Source of the DNA: Thuidium tamariscinum
Taxonomy: Eukaryota; Streptophyta; Bryopsida; Hypnales; Thuidiaceae
Assembly (NCBI GenBank): GCA_947034885.2
Contig: OX344751.2
Location: 41,011,082-41,075,081 of the forward strand
Length of the DNA stretch: 64,000 nt
Reading direction: 5' to 3'
Position numbers and translations under genes: made by a program
The notes under the pieces: generated by a model
What the model was told of the DNA's origin: nothing
Seen by the model: only the letters and a program-made list of their open reading frames with translations
Database searches by the model: none
In this document: positions 13,706-61,440 of the stretch, in pieces
How positions within the stretch are numbered: the first letter of the stretch is position 1
Layout of the letters: every line of letters begins with the position of its first letter

Positions 13706-13909
13706 GTGAGTGAAAAACTAGCGCCCTCCTGAAGGGAAATGACTTCAATGTGACTCGTAGGCTACTTTTCAGTGACCTAAGAGTCACAAGTAAGTCATAC
13801 CGGAGTTGTTCTCGCAATGTTTCCATTGTGAACTACGAAATGACTTTTCTGTAACCAGGGCGTGACTTAGCACATGTATCTAACCCGGACTTCATGTCTA
13901 TGTCTGCAG

Positions 13910-14812
13910 TATCTTCTCATCCGCTATACGCTGGACCTAATGCACTGCGAGCTAAACCTTGCCAAAAACTTTTTGAAAACCATATCAGGCAAGAAGGACA
14001 CTGTAAAAGTGCGCAGAGACTTGCAACGCCGGAATATGAGGAAGCACTTGTGGCTCACTCCACACCCACGTAAGGCCGGGAAGATGGTGAAACCACGAGC
14101 ATCTTATGTATTGTCTGAAGAGGAGTTCGAGAAATTTGTGAAGTATATAGAATCTTTGAAGACACCCAACGGATATTCCTCAGACCTAGCCAAAAGCCTC
14201 CTCAAGAAGAACTTTGGTGGGCTCAAGTCGCACGATTACCACATCTTGATGCAACAGGTGATGCCACTAGCTCTTCGTGGTTTAATGGAACCTGGACCTC
14301 GGATGGCTATCATGAGAATGTGTAGGGTTTTTCGTCGCTTGAGTACAAAGGTGTACAATCCATTGGATTTTCCCTCACTTGAGGCAGATGTAGCAGAAAG
14401 CATGGCATTGTTGGAGATTGAGTTCCCACCGTCATTTTTTGACATAATGACTCATCTCCCATACCATCTTGCAAAGGAATTGGACCTATGTGGTCCAGTT
14501 AGTGCTCAATGGATGTATCTGGTGGAGCGGTACATGAAGACACTGAAGAGCCATGTTCGAAATATAGCACGACGAGAGGCATGCATGGCGGAGGGGTACT
14601 TGAAGGATGAATGCCTTGGATTCATGACAGAGTACCTCCATAGTTTTGAGGGAACTCAGAGGCGTGTGTGGGATGAAGACGAAGAATACGGAGATGCAGA
14701 GGAGGTTCTGCAAGGGGCGGGAAGGCCATACGTGATGAGTCGTGAGCTAAGAGATGTGACACACCAGTATGTACTTTCCAACGCGTCGGTCATGCAGGAT
14801 TTGCTTATATAA
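13910..14812 (+). CDS. CACTA-1 transposase, DUF4218 exon
   Basis: After a TCTGCAG acceptor in phase 0 the frame opens YLLIRYTLDLMHCELN. DxMHxE is the conserved tnp2 C-terminal motif. DUF4218 follows (FFDIMTHLPYHLAKELDLCG, WMYLVERYMKTLKSHVRN, ACMAEGYL). The frame is open for 300 codons. CACTA-2 and CACTA-3 have splice donors (GTACGT, GTAAGT) at the matching end. Here the donor G is A (14809, ATAAGT), so the reading runs into TAA at 14810-14812. Splicing to the DUF4216 exon is probably lost. Confidence 0.85.
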   Translation, partial: YLLIRYTLDLMHCELNLAKNFLKTISGKKDTVKVRRDLQRRNMRKHLWLTPHPRKAGKMVKPRASYVLSEEEFEKFVKYIESLKTPNGYSSDLAKSLLKKNFGGLKSHDYHILMQQVMPLALRGLMEPGPRMAIMRMCRVFRRLSTKVYNPLDFPSLEADVAESMALLEIEFPPSFFDIMTHLPYHLAKELDLCGPVSAQWMYLVERYMKTLKSHVRNIARREACMAEGYLKDECLGFMTEYLHSFEGTQRRVWDEDEEYGDAEEVLQGAGRPYVMSRELRDVTHQYVLSNASVMQDLLI

Positions 14813-15880: not shown

Positions 15881-16004
15881 GATGAGTGGAAATTGGCTGC
15901 AGGAATTCAGTATTGCTACACTTGGAAGCTAGCTCTGTATCGCCGCTCTTTATTCTCCGCTATAGGCAAATAGGTTCATGTTGTCCTCGGCAGAAGTCGC
16001 CGTC

Positions 16005-17256
16005 TGTCGTAGCACAGGAAAGTCAAGTTGCTTCTCTAAGACCAGAAATGACCCTAAAGTGACTCGTTTATCGTTCCCACAGAGATTTAGTTGCCAGATG
16101 ACTAATATCCGGAAATCAGAATAAGGATTACCACAAAAAAAACACCAAGCACACTTATCTAATCTTACCTAATCATACTCTAAAACTCTACAGACTCCCC
16201 TATTTACAAATTTACAGAATCCAAACCGGAATAAAGAGTGGGTAGCAAGCCCAACTCTTCTACATCCTAAGATTCTTTCCGGTTTTTCCCAGTAACCAGT
16301 GTCCGGAATCGAATTTAACCTCTGAACAAAGAGGAATCTGCATATTGTGATTAAGGAAGGAAGCTTACAACCTACCCTCTGCGTTTTAGAGTGTCAAGAG
16401 TGCCACTTAAATAAAGAAAACAACAAAACAACATCAATCCTATTCAACCTAATTTCCCTCACAACTAAACCGGAATACCGGATAGCTATCTGGCCTAGCA
16501 GGTCATGCAAGGAAACTTCAGTCAAAGTCTTACTTACACTACAACGACGGCCTACTGGGTTAGTCTAAACTCTGGGCAGAATTCGGGACGGGCGGATTGA
16601 GAAGTCGTTACCTTCCCTACACATTTCCGGTTACCAAAGAACCTGTCTACCGCTTGAACTGGAGTTGTCCGGAATCATCAACGGCTATGGCTCCAAGTGA
16701 CTAGGACTATCTTCAGATAACGGGAAAACCGGAACCGATCGCACTGAGGGATCAGGAATCCACCATCACACACAGATTGCACTTACTCTCCCAAGAATCC
16801 GGATAAACCCAATATCCGGGCACACTCTCTCCCTACCTATTCCTGCAACTCTACAGAACATACACCAACAGAGTCACCCACTGGAATACACGCCGCCACC
16901 TCAATGTGAATCAGAAAGCTGATTTGAATTGCACAATGCTAGGAAAACAAGGTATGAAAATGCACACCAACAAACTAAAAACTAACACCTAAATACTTTA
17001 CAACCCAAGGGAAACCACAGCCCAAGGGAAATCAGAGCCAACCACAAGGGAATGACACGTGCCATTCGCCTTATCCGACTCTCAGTTGACTTCCACTGAA
17101 CGCCAGCACTGTCCATAAAAAGTGGATCTCAGATCCGAAAAATCCGGATCCAATGGAGTCAACCTTACCTACTCACCTAAAAGCAACTCAAAAAGTGCTT
17201 TCTACCAAAAACTTAGGTTTTCAGCCGCCTACCTACTGCTGTACCTAACCCTAAAC
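16005..17256 (-). other. LTR-D downstream non-coding part
   Basis: No ORF of note. TCCGGA/CCGGAA words recur about every 50-100 bases (16110, 16230, 16300, 16470, 16670, 16800), just as in the non-coding ends of LTR-E. Confidence 0.5.
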
Positions 17257-19145
17257 CTATTTCCTTGGCCGCTTCCCTAGAGTCTCTTCCTTCTTGGCGG
17301 CGCCCTTCCTTGGTGGCTGTTTCCGGGCAGAACCGAAAGTGTTCTTGCGCTTCCTCGCCTGTGTAGATTTGGCCTTCAGTTGGGCCTTGATCTTCCTTGT
17401 CATGGCCAACTTAGCATTTGGATCAGAATCAGGTTCTGACTCCTCACTTCCAGACCCAGAGGTGGACTCTTCATCCTCGTCCTCTGATTCCTCTTCTTCC
17501 TCTTCCTTGACCGGAATCGGCCTCTTCTTCTTTTGAGAATCTGTCACCTTGCTCAGTTGCTCTTGACTTGGGCAGGAATGGGGGAAACTGCTTGATCCTT
17601 GCTCTGTGGAGTTCCTACACTTCCTTCCCGATGCTGTGACTGACTTCTAGTTAATGAGCCTAGTGTGGACTCATTTTCAGTTCCTGATTCAAGGACAACC
17701 TTTGCCTTGGGAGGTGTGATCAAAACCACATCTTCCGATGGATTTCCGGTTTTCCCTTTCACTAAAGGAGTTGTCTGCTTGCCCTTTGGCAGTGGTGGTT
17801 TAGAAGGAGTCGCTTCTGTAGCTTTCCCTTTTTCCGGTTTAGTTTCCGGTTGGAGGGGTGGACTGACCTCTTCCATGACTTCCCTCATTTGCACCAACAA
17901 CTTCTCCATCTTTAAGTTGAAGGAAACTAGGACGTTAATAACCTTATCCCCTAGCTTTCCTACACTATCTAAGACCTTCTCATCAAAGAGTTTGGCCTTG
18001 TTTATGACTTCTGCCGGAACACTGATAAACTCTCTAATCCGGTCAAGAGTCTCTACTGACTGAGCTGACATCTTTTGGTTACGCTCACTTTCCTGCTTCC
18101 GCTTACTCAGCTTTGTCTTAAGGGAGAGCAGCTCATCCATCAACTCTTGATACTTAACCTTTCCGGCCTTCCCCTCAACGTCTTGTATCAGATTCCGGAT
18201 CTGCTCTATACACTCAGTCTCGGGAACATCTCCCAACAATTTGCACACCTTTTTCAAGGTTCCTCTTTCTCGCTCATATTCCCCACGGACTGTAGTGAGT
18301 TCCCCAATGATTGACCCTAAAGGGTCACTTTTCCAGACAAGTTCCTTCTCTTTCCCTTTCTCTACCTTAACCTCTGTCTTCTTTCGCTTTTCCGGTTCCG
18401 GTTTCCCTGTCGAACCGGAAAGCTCAGTCTTTCTCTCAGCTTCCTCCATCTCATCATCTGAGTCAGACTTCATCCCATGGGCTAGTTTCACTTCTTTAAC
18501 CGTATACTCTTGCCTCTCTGATGCCCTCATGCAGTCTTGAGAATGATAGAGATGGTAGAGGAAAGGAGAGATACTGGAGGGTTTAGTCTTTCCTACTCCT
18601 TTACACAACTTCCCGACGTACTCTCTGAAAACTATCCCCCAGTCTACTTTCCGGTCACCGCTCAGTGCTCCAAAAATCGTATTCCCTAGGGTGAGAGTCA
18701 TCCGGGTTCCCCTATCCGGACTAAGGATTGGGACCAGAAACTCCAACACCCTTCTCTCTCTTGCATCCTTGCAGTCACTCACGGTGTACCCATCCTTGGA
18801 GTGAGGTGCAGAACGAAACTTACCCACCACGAACTTGTCAGTCCGTGAGGCAAAGCCCTCACCCTCCTTAGCAAAACCATAAACTTCCCGCCAGACTCTA
18901 GCCGTCCACTTGTCCGGAAGTGCCCTCAAGGTCTTCCTCCACTCGTTCGACTGTGGGTGCAGAACCTCCCGCACCATGACATCGTCCTTGAAGTTCCAGG
19001 GCCGCTCGATCAATCCGGCGCAACCCATCTAACTGAGGTCCTCCAACAAGTCACCTCTCTCCTCTGCGTCTTCCGGAATAACCGGAACAATGTTCCTTAG
19101 CAATACCTTGGTGGCGGTCTCCTCCTCAGCCTCACTTCCAGACAT
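17257..19145 (-). pseudogene. LTR-D protein, unrecognised family, broken copy
   Basis: The probable start is the ATG at 19145 (MSGSEAEEETATK), aligning with the ATG at 52141 in LTR-E. The protein has a conserved N-terminal globular part (GLIERPWNF, VYGFAKEG, TDKFVVGKFR, KDGYTVSDC, NTIFGALSGDRKVDWG, PFLYHLYHSQD). A charged linker and a Lys/Glu-rich coiled-coil-like part follow, then a Ser/Thr-Pro region, and finally an acidic run (KEEEEEESEDEDEES) and a basic end (GKRPRK). A TAG at 19029-19031 and a frameshift near 17550 break it; each half is otherwise open. I do not recognise the family. The pattern resembles transposon-encoded nucleic-acid-binding or gag-like proteins, but no zinc knuckle, protease or polymerase motif is present. 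Confidence 0.65.
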
Positions 19146-19394
19146 GGCCGAAACTCTAAATCACTCGATGATACTCTCCAGAAAACCCACACCACAATCT
19201 TTCACACAACCCGACTAACTCGCCCGATAACTGAAACACTAAAGAAAACCAGAACGCCGGAAACCTCCTCCAACAGCACCAACGTGCACACACAGTCTCG
19301 CACGCTCAGAGCTGACCTAGAAAACACAATAATGAGGTCTAGAACCCTAAGTGACCAACCTTAAAGCCTCCACTCGGATTTCTCTCCAATTCTC

Positions 19395-19472
19395 GACCGT
19401 TGGGTAACGGAGTTCCCGTTTGATCTGACCGTTGAATCCTACCGATTCTGATTTCCCGGGAATCTGACCGTT
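19395..19472 (-). promoter_or_regulatory. Three GACCGTT (AACGGTC) boxes upstream of the LTR-D ORF
   Basis: GACCGTT occurs at 19395, 19427 and 19466, 250-330 bases upstream of the ORF start at 19145 on the reverse strand. The complement AACGGTC contains the AACGG core bound by plant MYB proteins. The role as an LTR enhancer is inferred; no clear TATA box was found in this copy. Confidence 0.3.
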
Positions 19473-19820
19473 AGGTGGCACTTTTCCCAAATTCCCAGTA
19501 CGCACTCCACTGGCTCCCTGTGGGCCCTGGCATGTTTTCGATAGACTAGTTACTGTTTTAGTTAGCTCTGGCTTTTGGATCTAATCTGATTTTGGACTTC
19601 CCGTATCCAGAAAGGTATTCCGGTTATAGTTCCGGTAAAAAGACAATCACTCCCTTAGCACTTTTATCTCTTTACTGTTTCCCTAACTTCCGGTTTTCCT
19701 TACTATACTATAACTCTGGATATAGACTAGAAAATCTAAAATAAATATGACAAATCGAAAAAATAAAACCTATTTAGTACTAAATAGACTAAAGATGGAT
19801 TTTAGGGTTGTGACACCGTC

Positions 19821-25701: not shown

Positions 25702-27250
25702 TGTGAGCCCTCGAGATGGCACTCAGCACTCTGGGTCCATTTTTCGCGATTAAATGGCGAAAATTAGTCAAAATATGCAAGAAAAAGACATAAAAAGAGT
25801 GTTGAGGGAGTTTTGGTGTCAGTCTATGCCAAAATGGTGGAAAACCAACTTAGATGGTGGAAAATTCCTAATCCTAGAAATTTGAATCATTCTAAGTCTC
25901 CAAAGCAAGTATATGTGAAGAATTAGTAATTCCGAGAGAAATAAGGAATAGAGAGTTAGTCAGTCCTAGCAATTGTCTGTACAAAGTCAACCTTTTAAGG
26001 ATGCACATGACATACTGACTAAGCTAGAAGAGTCTACTACGAGCGTGGGAGAGTTACCAGGGCTAAAGTTCAATTTTGGAATAAATTGGATTTAAAGGTA
26101 GAACCACTACAATGAATTTGGAGAATTCGAATTTCACGAGGCAAAAGATGGAGGATTGGAGATTGAAGACTACAGAGAGGTGTTCCAAGGGTAGGAGCAT
26201 GCCAGGAGCGAACAAGAATCAAACAATTGTCCAAGATTCTCGGGCATCGGGAATTAAATTGTCCAATTGGGCAAAGTAATTCCAAATTGCTAAAATTAGA
26301 AAGGTGCAAGGTTGCGTGGGACTTACACCAAGAATCTAGGAATGCCCTAGATGTTACCCAATTTATTTCGGATTTTTCCGAAATTCCACGTTGACTCCAT
26401 AGGAAGTCAACCGCACATAGAAATGTTCGTAAAATCATAGAAATTACGTATGATGCGATAAAATCTCACTAAAAATTAGGATAGGTTTTTGTGTGCTTAA
26501 TAAGCGCCCGGTCAAGTTTGAAGACATTCCGACATTCCCAACTACCAAAACCGACATCGACATCGAAATTCACTTGAAGTTACAAGTTGGCGGCGGGTTG
26601 ACCGACGTATCAGGAGCGAATGATGTCCAATTGTCGCAAATAAGGAGTCATTCCTTATTCTCACGGACATACCTAACGACCCTAGCCTGACAGATTCATC
26701 AAATTGCGCAAATCCTAAAAGTTAGATTTTTGACTTTTAATTGGAGTTACCGTAATTCCAATTTGGGCGCACAAATGGCCTAGGAGTGAGGGGTGAGGGG
26801 TCCCTTAGGCTAATTGGGGTCTTCTAAAGACAATGGCGCAGACGATTTTCCGTTTCGAGTTGTTCCCTAAAAGGTAGAGAGGGTCAGCTCTTAGTTTGAC
26901 TTTTTAATCGTTAATTGCGGTTAATTAGAAGTGATTTTGGAAATATCTCTTGGAAAATCAAAGATTGGATTTGGTCAAGATCTCTTTTTTGCGTAAAAAG
27001 CCATCTTTGGGCTAAAGAAAGACAATTTTTGAAATGACTTTGGATTAATTTGCAAAATATCTACGTAGATTAGGGTTAATTCCAAAATATTTTGGGTTAA
27101 GATCTTGGATTTGATTTGGCCAAGATTTCTTTGACAAAATGGGGATGTTTTTAGAAATTTCCACCATTAAACAACTAATATTTTGGAATTACATTAGGGT
27201 AGTTTAGGGTAGGAAGTAACAAAGTGTTTTCACCGGCAATTACCGAGAGG

Positions 27251-27300
27251 GGCCCGGCCACGGGTATATAAGGGCCCCCCTCGAGGTTGCCAGTACCTTC
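27251..27300 (+). promoter_or_regulatory. LTR-B core promoter, TATATAA
   Basis: TATATAA at 27265-27271 lies in a GC-rich setting (GGGGCCCGGCCACGGG before, GGGCCCCCC after). The identical block in LTR-C has its TATA at 40596, exactly the same distance (1563 bases) from the LTR start. Transcription would start about 30 bases downstream, so U3 is about 1.6 kb. Sequence similarity between the two LTRs drops soon after this point. Confidence 0.75.
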
Positions 27301-28189
27301 ATTTCTCACACCGACACTTTGTTATTTCACTTAGGTGCTACCGACGTGGTTGGAGCACCACTTGGACCAAAGATCTTGGCTAAGTTCTTTTATGTTTTGT
27401 GGTAAAATTTTGAAGGCTTAGGGCCCCTTCAACTAACTCTCATTTTGCAATCACATATTAGAGGTTCAACCTCAAACCTTTGCCATCTACTTCAAACGGA
27501 AAATTTGAGTGTGGAGCATCAAAGTTCGGTTTAAACACTGTCATGTGTACCTCCTTTGACTGCGAAACATTAAAATATTAGAAATTTTGAAAACTTAACG
27601 TGAAAGTTAGGTTCAAACACTGTCATATGTACCACCTTTTGCGGATAAAGTCTCAAAATACTATTCCTCTAAATCTCATACGGCGAAGCTCTGAACCCCT
27701 TACAATTCTCACAACCAAGGAAATTTAGTCACCAATTCAAATAACCTCTTTGGTAAAAGAATCAGTCAGGGAATAGACCATCAAAGCATTGGGTATTAGT
27801 AGAGTCAAGATGAGCTAATAACTCACTTGAACCATTCTCTTTATCATTCCCCCGTTGCGTTTTAAAGATATCGCTATGTTTTGATGAAGGACTAGAGTCG
27901 GTGGGATAAAATCTCTATTTGGCTAGCCAAGGTATCCAAATAATTCCCCAAGTACGTGTTCTTATAGTTTTATAGTGTCTTTGTGTTAGAATTATTAGTT
28001 TAGATTTCGTCAAAAACGTAAGTTAGTCTTGATTAGTTAGTTGTGTTTTTTTTGGAAAAAATCTGAAAAAACCAAAAATCAGTTTTGGGCCAGCCAGCCC
28101 GAAGGCCAGCCAGCCGAAGGCCAGTCAAGACTGAGCAGACAGTAAACAAGCCTCCCCTCTCTCCCCCCGCCAGGCCAATCACGCCTCAC

Positions 28190-31509: not shown

Positions 31510-33282
31510 CTTCTAATATGGCAGTCTGAAAAGACTACTGAGCCGCTTCAAACCATAAATTTTGGAGGGGTCCCCCGGAGCACCATCTCTGTTTCCAGCT
31601 GCTTTCCATGCCACGTACTCCAGTGCGTGCTGAATTTGCTCCTCCACTGTTACCTCTCTTGGTTTAGGGCGGTTTTCAATACAGCCATTGAAGTGCTCCT
31701 TCATTTCCTCAGACCTATATGGATGCCCTTCAGGGAGCCAACGACGAGTACCACCATAAGTGCACTTGCCAAGCTCCATGGAATGCTCAGCGCCTAAATC
31801 CATGCTACACCATGGACAAGCTGCATAACCTTGATGAGAGAATCCTCCAACGGTGCCATAACCGGGAAAGTCGTGGATAGTCCACAACAACATGCCCCTC
31901 AATTGGAAAGCCTTCATACCTACATCTTTGGTAACATCATGCGCAGGTACTCCATCCCACAACTCCAACAACTCCTCTAAAAGAGGCTCCAAATACACAT
32001 CAAAGACATCACTTGTAACGGACTCCCTCCCAGGAATCAACAAGGCCAACATCATGAAAAACTTCTTGGTGCTCAACCATAGTGGTAAATTGTAGTTCAG
32101 AAGCACCACCGGCCAAGTTGACCATGATGTTCGATTCAGCTTGTATGGGTTCACTCCGTCAGCTGCCAAGGCAAAGTGGACATTTCGAGGATCACTTGCG
32201 AAAGAAGGGTCCACATTTTCTTCGAAGTGCTGCCAGGCTTTCGAGTCACATGGATGCCTCACCAATCCATCCCCTCCTTCTTTGTTGCTACGATTCTTGG
32301 CATGCCAAACCATGAGCTTCGAGATACTTGGACTCATGAACATCCGTTGTAGTCTCGGAATGATGGGGAAGTGTCGTAGAACCTTCACTGGAAAGCAACG
32401 TCAATCTTCATCCCGATATCTGCGACTACCGCAGTGAGGGCAACAGAGGGCATTCTCATGGGGTCCACGGAAAAGTACACATCCACGCTCACAAGCGTGT
32501 ATGGCTTTGTATGTCAACCCCAACTTGCTTGTAAGGGACTTTGCTGCATGGTATGTTCTTGGCAAATTATTAGTCTTTGGCAGTAGATGTGAATGCAATA
32601 AACTGAAAAGTTCATTTGCACAATGGTTGCTTACAGAATGCACGGTGCACAAGTTCATTAATAGTACCGTTGCTACAAGCTTACTGGAAGCAGACCTGTC
32701 GTACAAAGGCTCCAAGCGCTCTTCCAACACCCTAGCATCGAAGTTGCAATCACCGTCGGCACCTTCTGGGCTTGTGACTTCAGGGTCTTGCTCATGACGA
32801 CCTTCTTGATCCTCTGCAATGCCACCGTTGCTCTCTTCCATAGATTCTGCATGGACTGAGTCTGCTATGTCAAAAGCATCCCGCATTTCTGCTTGAATTC
32901 TCTCTGCCGAATTTTCTGGAACTTCTACTGGTTCCAATGCTTGCATGACCATGCCATGAGTATCAACCGTGGCATCCAATGCCTCTAATTCTTCCAGATC
33001 TTCTCGTATCGGTCCCCAAAATTGTTCCTCCCACTCTTCATCCGAGGAGTCTCTTCCGCCGGGGCCTCTCCATAGCCGTGATTGAGGATCTCGGCCGTTG
33101 CGATGTAGGTGATCCCGTACGTTACGTATTAACAGTCTCTTACGACCCCTGTAGCTTGTACATGGACAATGCAATTTCTTCACATTGTACTCCCTAGCCC
33201 TTTGCAGCTCCCTCACCCAGAGGCAATCATCTCGTAGTTGCTGCCTTCGACTATCAGATAAGGGAAGTCTTGCGGGTATCAT
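31510..33282 (-). pseudogene. CACTA-2 transposase, tnp2 exon, two stops
   Basis: The ATG at 33282 opens MIPARLPLSDSRRQQL. A transposase-associated domain (LHCPCTSYRGRKRL, where the last Cys of CPCxxC is Tyr) is followed by the tnp2 core: VLRHFPIIPRL, LVRHPCDSKAW, ALAADGVNPY, TIHDFPGYG, AACPWCSMD and LFRLPY. A TGA at 32401-32403 replaces an Arg of CACTA-1, and a TAG replaces the Trp of PYW just before the GTGAGG donor at 31509. The other 590 codons are open. Acidic residues in ADGVNP and HDFPGY match the catalytic pattern of the family. Confidence 0.9.
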
Positions 33283-38958: not shown

Positions 38959-40581
38959 GTAAGAGTCCTCTTTGTGATGGTGTCTTCAATATCCATTTCA
39001 TATTTACTTTTCGAATTCTGAATACAAGTGAATGTGAGCCCTCCAGATGGCACTCAGCACTCTGGGTCCATTTTTCGCGATTAAATGGCGAAAATTAGTT
39101 AAAATATTCAAGAAAAAGACATAAAAAGAGTGTTGAGGGAGTTTTGGTGTCAGTCTATGCCAAAATGGTGGAAAACCAACTTAGATGGTGGAAAATTCCT
39201 ATTACTAGAAGTTTGGGTCATTCTAAGTCTCCAAAACAAGTTTATGTAAAGATTTAGCAATTCCGAGAGAAATAAGGAATAGAGAGTTAGTCAGTCCTAG
39301 CGAATGTCTGTGCAAAGTCAACCTTTTAAGGATGCATAAGACATACTGACTAAGCTAAAAGAGTCTACTACAAGCATGAGAGAGTTACCAGGGATTAAGT
39401 TCAATTTTGGAATAAATTGGATTTAAAGGTAGAACCACTACAACGGATTTGGAGAATTCGAATTTCACTAGACAAAAGATGGAGGATTGGAGATTGAAGA
39501 CTACAGAGAGGTGTTCCAAGGGTAGGAGCATGCCAGGAGCAAACGAGAATCAAACAATTGTCCAAGATTCTCGGGCATCGAGAATTAAATTATCCAATTG
39601 GGCAAAGTAATTCCAAATTACTAAAATTAGAAAGGTGCAAGGTTGCGTGGGACTTACACCAAGAATCTAGGAGTGCCCTAGATATTACCCAATTTATTTC
39701 GGATTTTTTCGAAATTCCACGTTGACTCCATGGGAAGTCAACCGCACATAGAAATGTTCGTAAAATCATAGAAATTACGTATGATGCGATAAAATCTCAC
39801 TAAAAATTAGGATAGGTTTTTGTGTGCTTAATAAGCGCCCGGTCAAGTTTGAAGACATTCCGACATTCCCAACTACCAAAACCGGCATCGGCATCGAAAT
39901 TCACTTGAAGTTACAAGTTGGCGGCGGGTTGATCGGCGTATCAGGAGCGAATGATGTCCAATTGTCGCAAATAAGGAGTCATTCCTTACTCTCACGGACA
40001 TTCCTAACAACCCTGGCCTGACAGATTCATCGAAATGCGCAAATCCTAAAAGTTAGATTTTTGACTTTTAATTGGAGTTACCGTAATTCCAATTTGGGCG
40101 CACAAATGGCCTAGGAGTGAGGGGTGAGGGGTCCCTTAGGCTAATTGGGGTCTTCTAAAGACAATGGCGCAGACGATTTTCCGTTTCGAGTTGTTCCCTA
40201 AAAGGTAGAGAGGGTCAGCTCTTAGTTTGACTTTTTAATCGTTAATTGCGGTTAATTAGAAGTGATTTTGGAAATATCTCTTGGAAAATCAAAGATTGGA
40301 TTTGGTCAAGATCTCTTTTTTGCGTAAAAAGCCATCTTTGGGCTAAAGAAAGACAATTTTTGAAATGACTTTGGATTAATTTGCAAAATATCTACGTAGA
40401 TTAGGGTTAATTCCAAAATATTTTGGGTTAAGATCTTGGATTTGATTTGGCCAAGATTTCTTTGACAAAATGGGGATGTTTTTAGAAATTTCCACCATTA
40501 AACAACTAATATTTTGGAATTACATTAGGGTAGTTTAGGGTAGGAAGTAACAAAGTGTTTTCACCGGCAATTACCGAGAGG

Positions 40582-40632
40582 GGCCCGGCCACGGGTATAT
40601 AAGGGCCCCCCTCGAGGTTGCCAGTACCCTTA
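40582..40632 (+). promoter_or_regulatory. LTR-C core promoter, TATATAA
   Basis: TATATAA at 40596-40602 lies within the same GGGGCCCGGCCACGGG ... GGGCCCCCC frame as LTR-B. Confidence 0.75.
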
Positions 40633-41344
40633 TTTCTCGCACCGACACTTTGTTCTGCTTCAGTGCTACTGGCGTGGTTGGAGTACCACTTGGACCAAAA
40701 TTTCTTGGCCAAGTTTTTGTTTAATTTCTGTTGTTACAACCTTGAAGGTTAGGGCCCTTCAATTGATTCCTGTGTTCTCTATTGTGAAAGGCTAAGCCTT
40801 AATCTTTTCTACATCCATTCTGTGGAAATTTCAAGTATTAAGTACCAAAGTTCGATTCAAACACTGTCATGTGTACCTCCTTTGGTGGCGAAATCTTGAA
40901 ATACTAAGACATTTTGAGCATTTAAAGTGAAAGTTAGGTTCAAATACTGTCATGTGTACCTCCTTTTGCGAATAAAATCCTTAAAATACTATTGACAAAA
41001 CTCAAGACGGCGAAGCTTTGAACTTCCTTCAAATAAGTTTATCAAAGGCAAAAGCCAAGGCCACCTAATTCTTTAGCATCGTGTTAAAATACAAGAGTAC
41101 GTTGAAATTAAACCCTCTCACATTGGTTGAGATAACCAAATTCAACGAATCCTTCCATTAGCACTACACCAATATTGGGACATGACCAATGTGCGGTAGA
41201 ATTCGTGGTACCAAGTGCTAAAAATTGTTCCGTTTAATCCAAAAACCAAGGCCAGCAGGACCAGCCCAAGGCCGAAGGACCAGCCAAGGAGCAGTCGGAA
41301 GCCAGTAAGGAGCATTCGGAGCCCCCCCCGCCCATCCAATCGTG

Positions 41345-49710: not shown

Positions 49711-50600
49711 GTAACCTCTTCTAATGCTGTTAAAAAAATTGCACTCACCTAAGACTACAAAAAATAAAAATTTAGAAACACTTAAAGCCTTTTGTCACAT
49801 CCTAGTTTTTTATTTGTTTTTGGCCATAACTTTTTATTTTTTGCTCCAAATGACTTAAAATTGGTAGGAAAGCTATTCATAGCTATTATAAATCTATAAT
49901 GAATTTTGGAGATTTTTCAAAAATAATTTATTATTTTTAAATAGCCCCAAAAAATTTCTCACAATACTTGATTTAGGGGGTTTTAGCACCATTTACCTGC
50001 AAAAAAAACGAATTTTGACCTAAAATTTAGAGAGGATGGTCTCCTAGTAGACTTATAGCTACTGTCTAAATGAACTTTTAAAATACTTATTTTAATGTGT
50101 TGTAGAAGTCTACAAAGAGAGCTTCATTTTGCATTTTTTCTTAAAATACATAAAAATACATCATTTGGAAAAACTTTGCGGAGATGAGATTTGACCAAAA
50201 AACTCACTAAAATAATGTTTTATACCTTTGGAAAAAAATGCAAAATGAAGCTCTCTTTGTGGACTTCTACAATACATAAAAATAAGTCTATTTTGAAAAT
50301 TCATTTAGACAATAGCTATAAATATACTAAGAGACCATCCTCTCCAAATTTTAGGTCAAAATTCGTTTTTTGGGGAGGTAAATGGTGCTAAAAACCCCTA
50401 AATCAAGTATTGTGAGAAATTTTTGGGGCTATTTTGAAAAATCTCCAAAATTCATTATAGATACATAATAGCCATGAGTAGCTTCCCAATAAATTTTGAA
50501 TCATTTGAAGCTAAAACACAAAATTTATGGCTAAAAAAAATCGGAATCTAAGGTGTGACAAAACGCAACAAATAGTACAAGTGTTTCTTGCAATCACCCA
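49711..50600. mobile_element. Long foldback element (~890 bp)
   Basis: Two arms of roughly 400 bp are inverted copies. Examples are the left-arm GCTTCATTTTGCATTTTTTC near 50121 against GCAAAATGAAGC near 50240, and GTCACA near 49795 against TGTGACAAAACGC near 50555. The outermost bases TCTTCTAATG and CATTAGAAGA also pair. Loop about 50140-50230. The right end carries GCAAGAAACACTTG (inverted), the terminal word of the 37533-38277 element. No ORF. The transcript would form a long hairpin. Confidence 0.75.
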
Positions 50601-51587
50601 TTAGAAGATATTAGCATTCAAGTTGGAAAAATAAAATTTTGAATGTTGGACTACAATTTCAATGACTTTGACCGTAATTCATGGAAATTTTTTGCACTAT
50701 AGACTTTGTTTTTTATGTTATATTATAATTTAAAAAATTGATTTAAAAGTCTAAGAAAAAAAATTCCAAAAAAACAAATTTGTTTTCAATCTCTAACCCC
50801 TAAAAGCCCAAAGGGTTAGGACAAAATGCAAATGTGATAAGATACAAGTTCTATAACTTTTTTGAAGTTATCATCAAAAAAGATTATATGAAACACAAAA
50901 AATAGAAAGTATCTATATAGGTAGAGTTTTAAAGTTGTTTTTAGATTATTTTCAAATGAATTTTGAAGATATAACTTCAAAAAAATCACCAAAAATACAA
51001 TTTCCTCTTTAGCACTTGATTTTTTTTGGATTGGTCAAAATTGTGGTTTCTATTGATTTGTGAAAAAATGAAAAAGATCTAATAATGAAAGAATCAACAT
51101 TTTCTCCAAATATTAAAATTTTCAATACTATGCAATTCTAAACACTTCCTGCTATTTTTCTTATAATTTTTATTTGATCACATTGATCTTAGTTTTGAAT
51201 GTAAATGTTGAAAGACAATCCAATTTTTTTAAATTGAAAAAATATATAATGCCCAAAAATTCTACCCAAAGTCAAGCAACAACCAAAAAAAAGCCACGTG
51301 AGTACTTAGGGGTTTACAAATTGTTAAGTAGAAATAGGTTGAACAAAAAAATAAATTATTGATAGCTCTAGGATAGAATTGAATCACATAAATTCTAATT
51401 GTGTGATTTTTCTAGGAAGAAAATTTTAACTTGATAAATAGTTTTTTAGAAAATTTGTGAAAATTGCATTCAAAATGAAATCTAATACGTTATTTTTCAA
51501 GAAGTTTCTATAATTGCTCAAAAAACAAGATTATCTATAATTTTTTAATCATTAGTCCAAATAGAATGAATCATAGCTTTATATGTA
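50601..51587. other. AT-rich interior of the hAT-type element
   Basis: No gene, repeat or element end recognised. Very A/T-rich with short homopolymers. Confidence 0.4.
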
Positions 51588-51956
51588 TGTCGCAGTCCGG
51601 AAATATCATGTAAGTGAAAATAGGAAGATAGTATATAGAGTAGCTCAATTTTTCAAAATTTTAGGGTTAGATATGGAAAGAAGAAGACAATTAAAGTCTT
51701 TTTTCCTTGGGATCCATCTGAACCGGATTGAGCAAGGAGAATTTCCGGGTTATGGGTATAAGTTTCCGGATCCGGATTCTCCAGTCTCCGGAACGGAACT
51801 TTCCGAAAGACGGATCCGGTATACCTAAAGACGGATCCGAGCCAGTTCCGGATGGTCGGCCCTTACAAGTCTACGCCGCCAACCTACGAAAACTAGCGTA
51901 ACGGCCAGGGAACGTCGTGCCGTTCCGAGGGGAACTGGGAACGCAGGGTACCGACT

Positions 51957-52000
51957 GGTATATAAACCCCTCTACTCCACTTCATTTTTCCTTTTCGATT
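51957..52000 (+). promoter_or_regulatory. LTR-E core promoter, TATATAAA
   Basis: TATATAAAC at 51959-51967 is followed by pyrimidine-rich CCCCTCTACTCCACTTC, as in plant promoters. The ORF starts about 150 bases downstream at 52141. Confidence 0.65.
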
Positions 52001-52140
52001 TGGCAAATCGAGGTACAGCTTGTGTGTAGGTTCTGGAGTGCGTATAGAGAGAGAAAGAGTGGTGAGCAGTAGAGATCGGTTCCGGGTTTAGTTCAGGGTC
52101 GGTGCCGACCGCACTGACAAGTTCCGACTCGGGCGGAGAG

Positions 52141-54126
52141 ATGGCGAGTTCTTCCAATCCAAAACGGGTGGTAGTAACTGCCAGGGCGATTTCGCCACTC
52201 ATCCCTTCCGATCCGCAACATCGGAAGGAGTTAGAGGATGATTTAGTCTTCCTAGGGTGTCACGGGTTGATCAAGCGCCCGTGGAGTGTGAAGAGTGACG
52301 AGATGGTGCAGGAAATCCTCTCGAGAGTTCCGAATCAGTACCAACTCACAGTAAGGAGTAGACCGAGTGCCTGGTCGCCGGATACCTGGGCGGATGTATA
52401 CGGTTTTGATAAAACTGGATTAGATATGGCTCCCCGGACGGATAAGTTTGGTGTTAACAAGTTCCGGAATCCGCCCCACCCTAAGGACGGATACTCAGTT
52501 CCAGATTGCACGAACGACCGGCACAGACAGATGTTGGAATTCCTGATTCCCATCCTCTACCCGGAAAAGCCTACCCGTGTCACGATGACGATAGCAAACA
52601 CCATCTTCGGGTGTTTTGAGAAGCGGATAGTCAACTGGAGCCTAGTCCTCCAGTATGTAGTTAATCGGCTAGCCGATCATGTGGGATGGGAGAAAACCAG
52701 CACCATCAACGCCTATCTGTTCCACTTGTACCACCACAATGATGTACTGAGCGGCCCGGAACTCCTCCGCTATGAGACGGGAGTTCAGATCCTCAAGTAC
52801 GGCTTGACGGATGAGTTGGAGAAGGAGCCGGAGGACCTAGAGGACGAGCGGATGGACGAAGACCCGGAAGAGCAGAAGCCGGCCAGCCAGCCGGAATGGA
52901 AGAAATCCACAACGCCGGATAAGAGGGGACATCCAAACCTGGATCCACCTGGATCGACCTTGGGGAAGAAGAAGCGGAACCACTTCGACACCATCATCCG
53001 ACACGCCATGATGGCACACGCGGACAGCAACAACTACGAGGCGATACTCGAGCAGATCGCCACCAAGCTAGGCGCGGTGAGGATCGAGGATATTCCGGAA
53101 ATCCTCGACCGTCTTCCGACTCAAGAGGTGTTGCGGAAGAAGGACGAGGAGATCCGGAAGTGGGAGGACGAATCCCGGATCCAGACGGATCGGACCCGAC
53201 AGGCGGAAGATCTGGCCCGGGTAGTTGAGGAGGGACGGCGGAAGGCGGAAGAGGAGCGGAATGGGCTCTGTAATACGGTGACGTATCTGGAGAGTGATCT
53301 CAGTGTCGCCAACGGGAAGATTGGCGAGGCTACCTCCTTGGTTCAGAACCTGTAAGAGTTGGTGGCCCAGCCGACGGAAACAGTGATGAGGGCGAAATTG
53401 TTTTCCGCCCGGCTGATGACGGAAGGGCACGTCACCGGATCAAAAGTCATCACAATCTTGGTGGATTACCAGGCCAAGATGGAAGGGGTACTGAAGGAGA
53501 TGAGGGCCTTAATTGGGGCTCTCAATCCGGAGTTGGGGGAAGGCCTGTCGAGCTTGCTCAACCAGCAGGTTTATACGGACTTCAGCCCCGGAGCGCAAGG
53601 ACGGATGTCGACGGATCGGAAGCTACTCGGAAACTCGCCGGTCGTGAAGAACCTCGGCGAACTCGGATCGGATCCGAATGCGGCCGGACCATCCAACACA
53701 CCTACGGAACTGCAAGAGAAGAGGGCATCACCACGGATCGACCTGGAGATCCGGATGAAGGCCCTAGCGAATCCGGCCAGGAAGAATCCGGAGAAGTTCG
53801 CCCACATGAACGAGCCAGACAGGGTTCCGGGCAAGGATCCGCGCAGCAAGACAGTCATCTTGGATGACTCGGATAGGGAAGACAATCCGCCCCTCATCAT
53901 CCGTGATGAAGCTAGGGAGCAGGGCGGATTTCAGGAAGTGGAGCATTCGGAAAGCTCCGAGGCAGATTCGGAGGAGACCTCGACGGAAGACAACGGAACG
54001 CCACCGGTTCCGATTCAGAAGAGGCAGACCCGATCCGCCACCAAGAAGGCTCCCCCTCCCAAGGTAGTGACGCGAAGGAATTCGGTTCCGCCCGCGAGTA
54101 CTACATCGAAGCGGGCACGTAAGTAG
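52141..54126 (+). pseudogene. LTR-E protein, unrecognised family, one in-frame stop
   Basis: ATG at 52141 (MASSSNPKRVVV). An earlier in-frame codon at 52102 is possible, but the LTR-D protein aligns from here. About 660 codons with a single TAA at 53353-53355. Conserved part: GLIKRPWSVK, DVYGFDKTG, TDKFGVNKFR, KDGYSVPDC, NTIFGCFEKRIVNWS, AYLFHLYHHND. A Glu/Arg-rich likely coiled coil spans about residues 310-405 (KKDEEIRKWEDES). After the stop the frame continues LVAQPTETVMRAKLF, with a helical segment (KMEGVLKEMRAL) like that of LTR-D. The end has an acidic run and a basic terminus (TSKRARK). No enzyme motif seen. Possibly a gag-like or regulatory protein; function unknown. Confidence 0.7.
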
Positions 54127-55356
54127 GACAGAGTTGTGTAGTTAGGTAGGATTTTGAGGTTTTGAGACGGAAGTTTCCTGGACGGATTTCCCGGATGTGG
54201 GCCCCGATCCGGAACTTTAGGGACAACTGGCCGGACCTTTCCGGATAATCCGGTTGGGCTCCAATTGGTTGTTTCGGATTTTCTTTTGCCTTGTTGGCAT
54301 TCCGTTTCTGTTTTTAGGCTTTGACTTTCATTTTGTTTTGAGCTTTTAAGGGGCAGGCAAGTTAGTTGGCCTGTCATTCCTTCCTAGTACATATTCCATT
54401 GTATTTCATTCCCTTCTTTAATTTGAGCTGGCGGATGGACATTCTAGCTCTGACTTGTGTTTGAGTCTTTTCTTGGTGTGTTCGTTGAAGTGTTGAGAGG
54501 CAAGAGGGACGGGTGAGGAGGAATCCGGATTCTTAGGCACTTGAAATCCGAACTGAGTGACCAACTTCCGAGAGTTAGGATCTTGAATCGTGAGTTTGAG
54601 CGTGGAGCCTTTAATTCACCGGAACGGTGATCCAATGTGAGTCCAGGAGTGACGAGGAGGAGGTTCCGGAACCGCAGGGGCGGATTCGTGCGGAGTTAAG
54701 CAGCTGCCATAGGAAAGTTCCGTCCACCGGAAGGTCTGCCAACCACTGAGTCGATCCGAAGAACTAGGAAAGTATGTCCTTTCAGGTCTAGGGGTTTTTG
54801 AATCTGTCGTTGTAGTAAGGGCAAGTGAAGTAGTCCTGAGTGACCTGCTAACCGGATTGGCCTAGAGCTATCCGATAAGTTGTGAGGATTCGGATCCGGC
54901 CCTAATACAACATCGGATATATTTTGGTGTTTTCGTGTGTTTTGTTTGAGAGGAGAGAGCGTGAGGTTTACGAGTGGTAAGTCCCTACCCCTCTAAAGAT
55001 CAAGAGAAGACTCCCTGAGGGTAAAACAGGGGTATCAAAAACCGATTATTGAGTGACGGAACCGGATTCCGGATTGAGATGGATCCGGGTAAAGGTGAAA
55101 TCCGGATCCGAGAAAGGAATCCGGTCATAGTTGAGAGACGGATCCAGAAAGAAACGACGGATCCGGAAAAGAGTTCCGGAAGACAAGTTGGTATTCCGGA
55201 TTAAGAGTAGTAACTTGGGTGTTTTGAGCTAGGAAACCTAGAAACCGGAAAATGCAACTATTAGTAACATCTGGAATCTCCTGGGACGATATTCCGTATC
55301 ATATTATCACGTTTGAGTGTGATAAAGGTGCTTTCTGCTAGACTGCGCATACGACA
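54127..55356 (+). other. LTR-E 3' tail, CCGGA-rich
   Basis: No ORF. GGATCCGG, TTCCGGA and ATCCGGAT words recur throughout, densest at 55050-55205. Confidence 0.5.
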
Positions 55357-56089
55357 ATGTAGACAAGGGGATTCTTGATTCTTTACGTGTTATATTTCAA
55401 TTTCATTTTGTAGACTTTTTCATGCAGTAATTTAGGAATGAACAAATGAGAGTAAATTTTATGACAAAAATTACAAAATATTTGCATAAGAGAATTCAAA
55501 TTTGAGATTCTATGCATAGACCTCAACACCTTATCACCTTGCATACAAGATATTCAACATATTTTTCTAAATGGCACATCATAAAGAATTTGTTAATTTA
55601 TTTACATTATTTTTTGAAATTTAGAGGCATGCAATGTGGCCTAACCATTTATGCTAATATAGGAATATCATGTCCTATTACAAAATAATGGGTGGGGGAA
55701 ACTATTTTCAAGAGCTTCATCAACCATAGTTTATCTATAAGCAAGATCACCAATTATCCATTTGTCAATTACTTCTTTGAAGCAATACACCCAACTTCCT
55801 CATTAAGCACCTTAATGTTGATGTATTTTCAAATACTTCACTATTGTATTTTTCCATATTATTAATTAATTTTCATCAAGTTGGCAAATTTTCCAATAGA
55901 ATACAAAATAGATTCCATTGTATATTTATACTTTGCTTGCATTCTCTCTATACTCTTCTCTAAATGTTATCACTTGTTCACAGAGAATAATTTTAGAGTC
56001 ATCTACCAACAATTCTTTAATTTTTAGGAAAAATAGTAAACAAGTTGAAAAATCTCAATCTAATGCCAAAAAATTCCAAAATAAAAGAG
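55357..56089. other. AT-rich interior of the hAT-type element
   Basis: No gene or repeat recognised apart from the LTR-E target duplication at its start. Confidence 0.4.
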
Positions 56090-59610: not shown

Positions 59611-60724
59611 TAGATTGTAATCTTCTAAAGTTTCATTGTCTCCACAAGGGGGTAAAGTGGATTTTGTACAAGTTCCTATAATGTCAAATTTTTATGGAAC
59701 TTCTTGAAACATTATTATAAGATAGAGAATCTTATTGGCTTTCTAGAAATGTAGTTTTATTTGAATTAGTGCCTAAAAGCAAGAGTCATATCACAATAAG
59801 CTTAGATCTAAATTATGTAGGTAAAAACAAATCCACAAAAATTAAATTTTTTTTTCTTATATATTGTAATTTTGTCTACTTAGAACTTTGATTCATTTTA
59901 TTTAGATTGGTGATGCAAAGATTATGAATCATTTTGTTTTGTGGACAATAATAATAAGATTTTGAAATTGTTTGAGATAGGATTCATTTTTTACTTCAAT
60001 TTTAATTTTTTTAAAAGCAGTTTTGTAGTATTAACATTGATTAATCGAACAATCTCACCATTAGGATTAGCATTTCTATTTCCACATTTCCACCTTAGAG
60101 CTATTAATTTTTTTTCCTCTATGATGTACCTTCTACTTAATAATTTAAAATAAAATGACAACCACATTATTTTTCTAACTTTCATTTTTCCTACATTCTC
60201 AACTTAATTTTGAATGATATATTAAGTTAAGATCTAAAGTGAAAACTTTTTAAGTTAAGAAAATCAAATCTCTTAAGCTAAAGTAGACCAACCCATTTCC
60301 ATTTGTAACTCTATTCCACCAACTAGACTAGCCTATTTCCGTCACTCTAGTTTTGGCCCCATTTCTACCTCCCCCCCCCCCCAATTCCCTTCATTCTATG
60401 ACAAAATCAAGGATTTTATGACAAGTTGGAGTAACGTGTCACTATTTAAATAGAAAATATCTAGTTGTTGATTAGGTGGTTATACAATGTTTATAAGTTG
60501 TTTATGATCCTAGCCTAGGCGGTTTTGTAATTTAGGATTGTCTACTTCAAAAATTCATAGAAATTACAATTTTGATTGAAAAATTATAATTTCATTTGGG
60601 TTTGATTCAAGAAACATGTGCACACTTCAAATAAATATGTACCCCTTTTAGAATTGACTCCAATATAGCTAGATTGCAAATAGGCATGTCTACCTTAGTT
60701 TGTCATTGTCCCCTAAAACATAGT
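59611..60724. other. AT-rich interior of the hAT-type element
   Basis: No gene seen. A run of 14 C near 60371 is the only landmark. Confidence 0.4.
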
Positions 60725-61220
60725 TTTTTCACTTTGAATGCAATTATCTTGCAATCTATGTGGTGAAAATTTTTGAAATTTTTTTCACATATTCTTATAG
60801 TATAATATTGTAAGATCCTTCCATTACATTTGCAAAAAATTCCATTAAAATTTTTTTTTGCTCTTTATACTAGAAATGGCAGTTTTGAGTGTTTTTTTGA
60901 CAATTGCAACAAAGAGGTCGCCCACTCGAGGTCGCCCCTTGACCAGAGGTCGCCTAACCAAGGTCGCCCCTAGACAAGAGGTCGCCCACCCGAGGTCGCC
61001 ATAGTCCCCCAAAACATAATTTCTACACTTTGAATGCAATTATCTTGCAATCTGTGTGGTGAAAATTTTTGAAATTTTTTTCACATATTCTCATACTATA
61101 ATATTACAAGATCCTACCATTATATATGAAAAAAATTTCATTTCTAATTTTTTTTGTTTTTTGTACTAAAAATGGCAGTTTTAAGTGTTTTTTTGACAAT
61201 TGCAACAAAGAGGTCGCCCA
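60725..61220 (+). repeat. ~296-bp direct duplication
   Basis: CACTTTGAATGCAATTATC at 60731 and again near 61027, each followed by the same ~195 bases ending CAATTGCAACAAAGAGGTCGCCC. The second copy leads into the terminal GGTCGCCC array. Confidence 0.85.
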
Positions 61221-61440
61221 CCCGCGGTCGCCCCTTGACAAGAGGTCGCCTACCCGCGATCGCCTCTTGATAAGAGGTCGCCCCCAAACCAGAGGTCGCC
61301 CCTCGACAAGAGGTTGCCCTCAAATTGGACACGTGGTCGTCCTATTTTGAAGCGCGGTCGCCCTTCCCGAAGTCGCCCTCAAAATTAGACACGCGGTCGC
61401 CCTATCTTGAAGCGCAGTCGCCCCACCCGAAGTCGCCTAC
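60908..61440 (-). repeat. Right subterminal GGTCGCCC array
   Basis: More than fifteen copies of AGGTCGCCC or CGGTCGCCC at ~18-35-bp spacing, in inverted orientation to the left-end array at 49545-49655. Confidence 0.8.

What the first reader, a model, noticed from the sequence alone, without database searches (positions are those of the whole stretch)
51588..55356. LTR-like elements that carry a single large ORF of unknown family (LTR-E and LTR-D)
Two copies, 16005-19815 (reverse) and 51588-55356, have TGTC...GACA ends and 5-bp target duplications (CCGTC, ATGTA). Each encodes the same ~630-660-residue protein from about 150-400 bases after the promoter region. The protein has a conserved N-terminal globular part, a coiled coil, and acidic then basic tails, but no integrase, reverse transcriptase, protease or zinc knuckle. 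Either these are solo LTRs with an accessory gene inside the LTR, or a non-autonomous single-ORF element class. Both copies are only lightly broken (one TAG plus one frameshift; one TAA).
Basis: partly seen in the sequence, partly recalled or inferred. Interest (0 to 1): 0.8.

Follow-up and report, generated by a model that had tools for sequence, protein, structure and literature searches.

The report
Retrotransposon repeats carrying their own gene
Two orphan stretches in this plant-like genome are leftover end-repeats of virus-like jumping elements, and unusually each end-repeat contains a large gene of unknown function that selection has preserved and that is scattered through the genome in many copies.

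Summary
D (51588-55356, +) and E (16005-19815, -) have TGTC...GACA ends, exact 5-bp target duplications and related ~630-665-residue ORFs. The same genome holds elements with LTR, CTTT, a primer-binding site (18 of 18 bases complementary to a tRNA-like 3' end found in this genome), a 5.93-kb interior with a retropepsin-like stretch and a Pfam-detected reverse transcriptase, a polypurine tract, and a second LTR. In a related subfamily, G, one place has an uninterrupted ORF on each side of an open frame bearing protease and reverse transcriptase. LTR position is shown for D/F and G and likely for E. Context-controlled tests indicate purifying selection. The protein has a conserved N-terminal domain, a coiled coil, an acidic stretch and a basic C-terminus resembling a nuclear signal; no Pfam family matches. 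At least 67 ORF copies at 89% or more stand against 8 protease copies at 95% or more. Function is inferred: a nuclear, trans-acting accessory protein. The closest known arrangement is sag in the MMTV 3' LTR; my open-access searches listed no plant precedent.

The parts
51588..55356 (+). D unit: a solo LTR (TGTC...GACA) of a Ty3/gypsy-type element
   Evidence: Ends and 5-bp duplication; ends shared by related copies; closely related LTR ends abut PBS and PPT around a protease/RT interior elsewhere
51583..51587 (.). left target-site duplication ATGTA of D
55357..55361 (.). right target-site duplication ATGTA of D
51959..51966 (+). TATATAAA box, presumed promoter inside the LTR (start of transcription about 51990 is inferred)
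   Evidence: TATATA core kept in 16 of 16 aligned units
52141..54126 (+). LTR-encoded ORF of D (661 codons), broken by one TAA at 53353-53355; conserved N-terminal domain, coiled coil, acidic stretch, basic NLS-like C-terminus
   Evidence: naturally uninterrupted copies elsewhere; purifying selection
54977..54982 (+). GTAAGT, splice-donor-like site between the ORF and the LTR end (function not shown)
   Evidence: identical in 16 of 16 aligned units; a GTAAGC lies at a roughly comparable place in E
16005..19815 (-). E unit: solo LTR of a related subfamily
   Evidence: E-type ORFs lie 5.1-5.4 kb upstream (two places) or 4.9 kb downstream (one place) of a related protease
16000..16004 (.). target-site duplication CCGTC of E
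19816..19820 (.). target-site duplication CCGTC of E
17257..19145 (-). LTR-encoded ORF of E, broken by one TAG (19031-19029) and one frame change near 17553

Best explanation
D and E are solo LTRs of a group of Ty3/gypsy-type retrotransposons (about 13.5 kb for the D/F type, if both LTRs are full length) that keep an accessory gene inside the LTR rather than between the LTRs. SHOWN: the LTR is about 3.8 kb, with a conserved TATA box near base 370, the 630-665-codon ORF at about bases 550-2540 and about 1.2 kb more before the terminal GACA; in full-length elements such an end is followed by CTTT, a PBS, an interior with protease-like and RT sequence, and a PPT directly before a second LTR start. 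INFERRED: because the ORF lies downstream of the promoter but inside the repeat, every integration makes two copies of it, and LTR-LTR recombination, which deletes gag-pol, leaves a promoter-plus-ORF unit behind. The ORF is the cap-proximal cistron of the element RNA, so gag-pol is presumably reached by splicing or reinitiation. The product, with coiled coil and basic C-terminal signal, most likely acts in trans in the nucleus on element RNA, chromatin or pre-integration complexes, and could be supplied by solo LTRs as well as by full-length elements.
For: Boundaries and duplications recur (11 of 18 exact, 14 of 18 within one mismatch). Of 25 hits of the D 3' terminus followed within 4 bases by TGG, 7 continue as CTTTTGG; 6 of these 7 carry the interior head. 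LTR/PBS junction: 16 places, reversed control 0 (letters shown for 5 of 16 rows, 4 of the 5 with the PBS exactly complementary to the tRNA-like end displayed, one with a single difference). PPT-type AAAAAGG(A/G)(A/G)TCG directly before TGTC in 5 of 9 hits, control 0; in all 5 a protease match of >=95% lies 3,586-3,587 bases upstream and the RT match 1,350 bases after it. Both junctions around one interior at 3 of these 5: C3 (5,933), C7 (5,939) and C11 (24,800, the excess lying between head and protease). RT: RVT_1 E=2.7e-6. G: uninterrupted ORFs on both sides of a 1,408-aa frame with PR and RT, spacing 10,096, equal scores. No stop in 27 of 67 scored D/F-type rows and 16 of 18 G rows. Fewer non-synonymous changes than expected in 10 of 10 context-controlled comparisons, at most 3 of 500 simulations as low in 9 of 10. 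Relatives in the protein collection.
Against: No transcript, protein or polyadenylation data, so expression and the nuclear role are inference. 40 of 67 scored D/F-type ORFs are broken, including the one in the 5' LTR of the C3 element, and both copies in the window. Only the 5' LTR ORF of C3 is in the scored lists; the ORFs of its 3' LTR and of the C7 and C11 elements were not seen. One of the 7 CTTTTGG hits (C11:102099) has no interior head. 2 of the 5 PPT places (C5, C6) have no head match. For E, no pair with PBS and PPT was shown. Codon positions 1 and 2 are only slightly less diverged than the non-coding LTR.
Confidence: 0.93

Rival explanations
1. The LTR ORF is a passenger: a captured sequence kept only because it lies inside the LTR and is copied twice, with no role in the element's life.
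For: No known domain; 40 of 67 scored D/F-type rows have stops; overall divergence of codon positions 1 and 2 close to that of non-coding LTR.
Against: Context-controlled deficit of non-synonymous change in 10 of 10 comparisons; frame and N-terminal domain kept between subfamilies only 33-44% identical and in proteins of the public collection.
Confidence: 0.08
2. The unit is a non-autonomous single-ORF element class that moves as such, not a solo LTR.
For: Most fetched copies are single units with their own 5-bp duplications, and no paired LTR around a retrotransposon interior was seen within about 5.6 kb downstream of the 20 D copies.
Against: The unit has no terminal repeats of its own at the sensitivity used, and the same ends abut PBS and PPT around a protease/RT interior. 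Solo LTRs give exactly this pattern.
Confidence: 0.04
3. The LTR ORF is a structural second Gag rather than a regulatory protein.
For: Helical N-terminal prediction and coiled coil (both of low confidence).
Against: 2.3 kb lies between PBS and protease in the interior, enough for a normal gag; no CCHC knuckle in the four proteins checked; the strong N-terminal conservation is unlike what I recall of Gag.
Confidence: 0.1
4. The protein is specifically a silencing antagonist that keeps LTRs active, supplied in trans by solo LTRs (a special case of the best explanation).
For: Nuclear-signal-like C-terminus; many copies with the frame uninterrupted.
Against: No direct evidence; an RNA-export, integration-targeting or import role fits the same facts.
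Confidence: 0.25

Closest known systems
Ty3/gypsy non-chromovirus plant LTR retrotransposons (Ogre/Tat/Athila and allied lineages)
   Same: Large LTRs (up to about 5 kb reported), tRNA-Asp among the primers used, duplications of 4 or 5 bp (PMC6317226, passages)
   Different: [quoted passage not shown] here the ORF is inside the LTR. Lineage by RT tree not determined.
MMTV sag (superantigen encoded in the 3' LTR)
   Same: An accessory gene lying inside the LTR, making the LTR unusually long; endogenous copies tend to keep it while virion genes decay (PMC3026287, passages)
   Different: An animal retrovirus, expressed from spliced RNAs; no relation of the proteins was tested or is claimed. That sag lies upstream of the LTR's own promoter is recalled; here the ORF is downstream of the TATA box.
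Accessory ORFs of maize Grande (gene23) and Retand (ORF4)
   Same: Element-borne proteins of unknown function, some nuclear (PMC7264820, part 2)
   Different: Antisense, between pol and the 3' LTR; Retand ORF4's Transposase_28 was not among the 25 of 42 weak families shown for 32 of our proteins; Grande gene23 was not compared

Membership tests
Solo LTR / LTR retrotransposon | TG...CA ends and short target-site duplication | tested here: met
Solo LTR / LTR retrotransposon | Two direct LTR copies flanking an interior in at least some copies | tested here: met
   By junctions and coordinates: C3 and C7 (LTR-end/PBS and PPT/LTR-start 5,933 and 5,939 apart); G pair on C6 by ORFs. Full repeats not read base by base.
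Solo LTR / LTR retrotransposon | PBS complementary to a host tRNA just after the 5' LTR | tested here: met
   18 of 18 to the one tRNA-like 3' end displayed (6 loci, letters of 5 withheld); that these loci are tRNA-Asp genes is recalled, not run through a tRNA finder
Solo LTR / LTR retrotransposon | PPT just before the 3' LTR | tested here: met
   5 of 9 hits share the tract; for its spacing
Ty3/gypsy superfamily | Reverse transcriptase | tested here: met
   L046, 72 aa: RVT_1 E=2.7e-6, 27.7 bits, just under the curated cut-off of 29.6 for the whole domain
Ty3/gypsy superfamily | Aspartic protease upstream of RT | tested here: inconclusive
   DGGSG and LLGRPWL-type motifs read by eye in L045 (motifs recalled); Pfam found no family
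Ty3/gypsy superfamily | Order PR-RT-RH-IN (integrase last; separates it from Ty1/copia) | not tested
   Interior beyond RT not read; RT directly after PR and about 2 kb left between RT and the 3' LTR fit this order
Known accessory-ORF families (plant mobile domain, Transposase_28, Athila ORF-1) | Pfam profile match | tested here: not met
   none among the families shown (25 of 42 weak ones shown)
MMTV-like LTR-encoded gene | Complete accessory ORF inside the LTR | tested here: met
   52141-54126 within 51588-55356; resemblance of arrangement only
Retrovirus | env gene | not tested
   Interior of 5.93 kb mostly not read

The most novel reading that the evidence does not exclude
Solo LTRs here are not dead relics but a dispersed family of stand-alone genes: by moving its trans-acting nuclear gene into the LTR, the element ensures that LTR-LTR recombination, which normally kills an element, leaves behind a promoter-ORF unit that still helps its relatives, so the solo LTRs behave as a self-amplifying helper population.
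Probability: 0.22. Interest if true: 0.82.

Novelty: new variant of a known kind. Interest (0 to 1): 0.62.

Why it matters
Accessory genes of plant LTR retrotransposons are described as lying between the LTRs, where they are lost when a solo LTR forms. A conserved 630-665-residue gene inside the LTR of related families changes that logic: the gene is duplicated at every insertion and survives solo-LTR formation. It offers a natural test of whether solo LTRs can act in trans, and it defines an orphan protein family with relatives in public protein collections. Annotation pipelines may also count such copies as host genes (one relative carries a source label for an rRNA-processing protein).

Tried and rejected
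Two AlphaFold2 jobs with 10-row alignments gave poor models (pLDDT 53.0 and 42.5); only the coiled coil (about residues 281-390) was confident, so no fold search was run. PDB sequence searches matched only the coiled-coil half or outside the N-terminal domain, weakly. Pfam at permissive cut-offs gave scattered matches; PHROGs one at E=0.051. A bacterial/archaeal genome scan with the D-type alignment and a plasmid search with the E protein gave no relatives. Rfam found nothing in the window at gathering scores. A D pair 8.6 kb apart (L026/L037) looked like a full-length element but has DNA between that shows no retrotransposon frame by eye and no matching flanks of the first copy; rejected. L015 abuts two further D-like pieces, which I read as insertion into an older D copy. 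Four other ORF copies in held loci showed no matching ends. Three of the six same-strand ORF pairs within 20 kb (C11:2823945, C11:12922361, C11:13682546) have no protease of the entered list between them and stay unexplained; the C10 pair, 18.4 kb apart, flanks a protease. Aragorn on held DNA printed no tRNA. One search stopped on a script error in its second half and was rerun.

Full report
WHAT WAS CHECKED. D is 51588-55356 (+) with ATGTA on both sides; E is 16005-19815 (-) with CCGTC on both sides. Among all TGTC/GACA combinations of unit size around each ORF, only one of 10 (D) and one of 78 (E) had matching 5-bp flanks, where chance would give 0.01 and 0.08. D and E share no DNA match in the window self-comparison as listed; P0001, an uninterrupted D-type protein, is 33% identical to E. 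D is broken by one TAA; E by one TAG and one frame change.

THE UNIT IN THE GENOME. The window lies in a 363-Mb, 19-contig assembly. Its plant nature is my inference from CACTA-type tnp2 and DUF4218 proteins in the window; the species was not identified. The first 213 bases of D found 305 candidate places, 40 scored, all 40 at 91% or more; those of E 93 candidates, 40 scored, at 86% or more. I fetched 20 D-like copies. Of these 18 have both unit ends; 11 of 18 carry exact 5-bp duplications, 3 of 18 differ by one base and 4 of 18 by two or more. Two of the 20 show a second D match within the 10 kb fetched: L015, which looks inserted into an older D copy, and L026, whose second copy lies beyond DNA with no retrotransposon frame that I could see. 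So most copies are single integrated units, which fits solo LTRs but would also fit a separate element class.

THE DECISIVE STEP. If the unit is an LTR, some copies must be followed by a primer-binding site and others preceded by a polypurine tract. A search for the D 3' terminus followed within 4 bases by TGG gave 25 hits, control 0; 7 of 25 continue identically as CTTTTGG, one more as CTTTGG. Two of the seven were read on: GACA-CTTT-TGGCGCCGCTGCCGGGGA in one, with two changed bases in the other, then a shared open frame. The 18-base site is exactly the complement, with CCA added, of the 3' end displayed for one of six tRNA-like loci in this genome (the other five have the same number of mismatches but their letters were withheld; that they are tRNA-Asp genes is recalled). 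A search for the LTR/PBS junction with up to 3 mismatches gave 16 places, control 0; letters were shown for 5, of which 4 have the exact site and one a single difference. The interior head matches at 9 places, all 9 candidates scored: 7 cover at least 437 of 474 bases, one is a 68% partial match and one a 44-base piece near another hit. Of the 7 CTTTTGG places 6 are among them; C11:102099 is not.

A search for purine-rich sequence directly before the D 5' terminus gave 9 hits, control 0; 5 of the 9 share AAAAAGG(A/G)(A/G)TCG. Fragments of the C3 interior read by small requests gave a retropepsin-like stretch (L045: DGGSG and LLGRPWL-type motifs, by eye; Pfam found nothing) and reverse transcriptase (L046: FIDD motif; RVT_1, E=2.7e-6, 27.7 bits against a cut-off of 29.6). 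Genome-wide, the protease piece has 8 matches at 95% or more, 150 scored of 180 candidates. All 5 PPT/LTR junctions lie 3,586 or 3,587 bases downstream of one of these protease matches, and in all 5 the RT match lies 1,350 bases downstream of the protease. At 3 of the 5 the LTR/PBS junction is present too: on C3 and C7 the two junctions are 5,933 and 5,939 bases apart; on C11 24,800, the extra 18.9 kb lying between head and protease, which I read as a nested insertion. At the other two (C5, C6) no head was matched. On C3 an LTR ORF (89% identical to P0001, one TAG) lies 5,578 bases before the protease, inside the 5' LTR. The D/F-type element is therefore about 3.8 + 5.9 + 3.8 kb, the length of the second LTR being assumed.

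OTHER SUBFAMILIES. The E protein search scored 87 of 1,707 candidates, 90 matches. It showed a third group, G: 18 rows at 44-45% identity, 16 of 18 without a stop, in frames of mostly 639 aa. Two G ORFs on C6, same strand, 10,096 bases apart and with equal scores, stand on either side of a 1,408-aa open frame that contains both protease and RT matches. Of the 50 protease places that I entered, 7 have an LTR ORF from the scored lists (67 and 90 rows) within -15 to +30 kb: 5 of the 7 at the spacing expected (C3; C6; and, with E-type ORFs, C11:592435 at -5,139, C11:16469140 at -5,388, C10:15620990 at +4,927), 2 of the 7 not (C8 at -11.9 kb, C11:4824108 at +8.6 kb). The scored lists are capped, so absence elsewhere says little. 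The E-type ORFs at these places are broken, and for E the case is weaker than for D/F and G.

COPY NUMBERS. 67 of 1,788 first-look candidates for the D-type ORF were scored; all 67 are full length at 89% or more, 27 of 67 without a stop. Against 8 closely matching proteases this means at least six solo ORFs per full-length element even if each of the 8 has two; the thresholds differ, and the unscored candidates are not confirmed.

THE PROTEIN. P0001 (L019) has 665 residues. Residues 1-230 hold most of the conserved positions. A coiled coil follows, then an acidic stretch and a basic end: SKRARK, VKKPRKGK, QKKARKGK and AKRPRKAK in four proteins and GKRPRK in E, resembling a monopartite nuclear signal (recalled). 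No CCHC knuckle occurs in the four proteins checked and no Pfam family was found at a meaningful score. Both structure predictions were poor. Three successive searches of a 5.8-billion-protein collection, each scoring about 8,000 candidates, gave 5, 7 and 121 relatives. None of the 124 listed relatives is 90% or more identical to the DNA held here, one exceeds 70%; since only part of this genome's subfamilies is held, I cannot say how many come from other species. One, P0011, stands for 109 sequences, which suggests a repeat.

SELECTION. Simple dN/dS ratios were 0.10 to 0.37 in the 5 of 12 pairs with at least 80% identity; one more pair gave 0.31 with dS of 2.3; 6 of 12 had no usable dS. Because CpG decay can mimic selection, I redealt the observed changes among sites of equal base and CpG context: in 10 of 10 comparisons there were fewer non-synonymous changes than expected, with at most 3 of 500 simulations as low in 9 of 10 and 15 of 500 in the tenth. 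These comparisons share sequences and are not independent. Among 16 D-like units divergence is 0.054, 0.048 and 0.094 at codon positions 1, 2 and 3, against 0.061 and 0.057 in the non-coding parts: positions 1 and 2 are only slightly below non-coding, and position 3 lies above it, so the plain rates alone would be weak evidence. Selection here acted on the lineages that gave rise to the copies; it does not show that solo copies are used.

HOW IT MOST LIKELY WORKS. The TATA box at 51959-51966 has its TATATA core in 16 of 16 aligned units, and the ATG is kept in 16 of 16. The ORF lies downstream of the presumed promoter yet inside the repeat, so it is copied twice by reverse transcription and should be the first cistron of the element RNA. 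Whether it lies in R or U5 depends on the poly(A) site, which is unknown. A GTAAGT near the LTR end, identical in 16 of 16 units, could be a splice donor leading to gag. The most likely role is a nuclear trans-acting accessory factor (inferred).

WHAT IS KNOWN. A review of additional ORFs in plant elements (PMC7264820; parts 1-2 of 3 read) places them in the internal region, mostly between pol and the 3' LTR. A survey of plant LTR retrotransposons (PMC6317226; [quoted passage not shown] the phrases 'within ltr' and 'in the ltr' do not occur in its main text. Of a Retand paper (PMC11963269) I saw two passages. The known gene inside an LTR is MMTV sag (PMC3026287; passages). The listings of my open-access searches showed no title or abstract start on a plant element with a conserved gene inside the LTR; subscription papers are mostly not covered, so this is no proof of absence.

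VERDICT. Ordinary in being solo LTRs; unusual in that the LTR carries a conserved, selected, large gene in two related subfamilies and probably a third. A new variant of a known kind.

Noticed in passing
G000 contig C11 (17.5 Mb): C11 is 4.8% of the assembly but holds 18 of 40 scored D 5' ends and 26 of 67 scored LTR ORFs; binomial p below 1e-13 in both (the scored rows are the best-matching ones, not a random sample). It could be a low-recombination or sex chromosome; not identified.
   Followed up: partly
window 12329-14812 (+) and 31513-32388 (-): CACTA-type transposon pieces: tnp2 transposase (PF02992) and DUF4218 (PF13960).
   Followed up: no
window 3207-5060 (-): 617-aa ORF with an NLI-interacting-factor-like phosphatase domain (PF03031, E=5.8e-10) among the repeats; host gene or captured gene not decided.
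   Followed up: no
window 25702-27696 and 39033-41023: 2-kb direct repeat, 92.6% identical, 13.3 kb apart.
   Followed up: no
window 1485-1800, 49787-50566, 60704-61300: Inverted-repeat (foldback) structures, 79-88% self-complementary.
   Followed up: no
L028:6828-8360: Tandem-like array in steps of about 127 bases, about 85% alike, downstream of a D copy.
   Followed up: no
G000, protease matches at 73-79% identity: 34 of the first 50 protease rows lie at 73-79% identity; several have open frames of 1,370-1,408 aa and identical scores, suggesting recent activity. One, on C6, has LTR ORFs on both sides.
   Followed up: partly
G000 C1:40863058, C7:15569818, C9:2937390, C9:10949112, C10:14760730, C10:20691289: More distant elements (nearby protease 42-48% identical) share the TACGACA/PBS junction; whether their LTRs also hold the ORF was not tested.
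   Followed up: no
P0011: A relative that stands for 109 member sequences in the protein collection, so the family may be repetitive in its source genome too.
   Followed up: no
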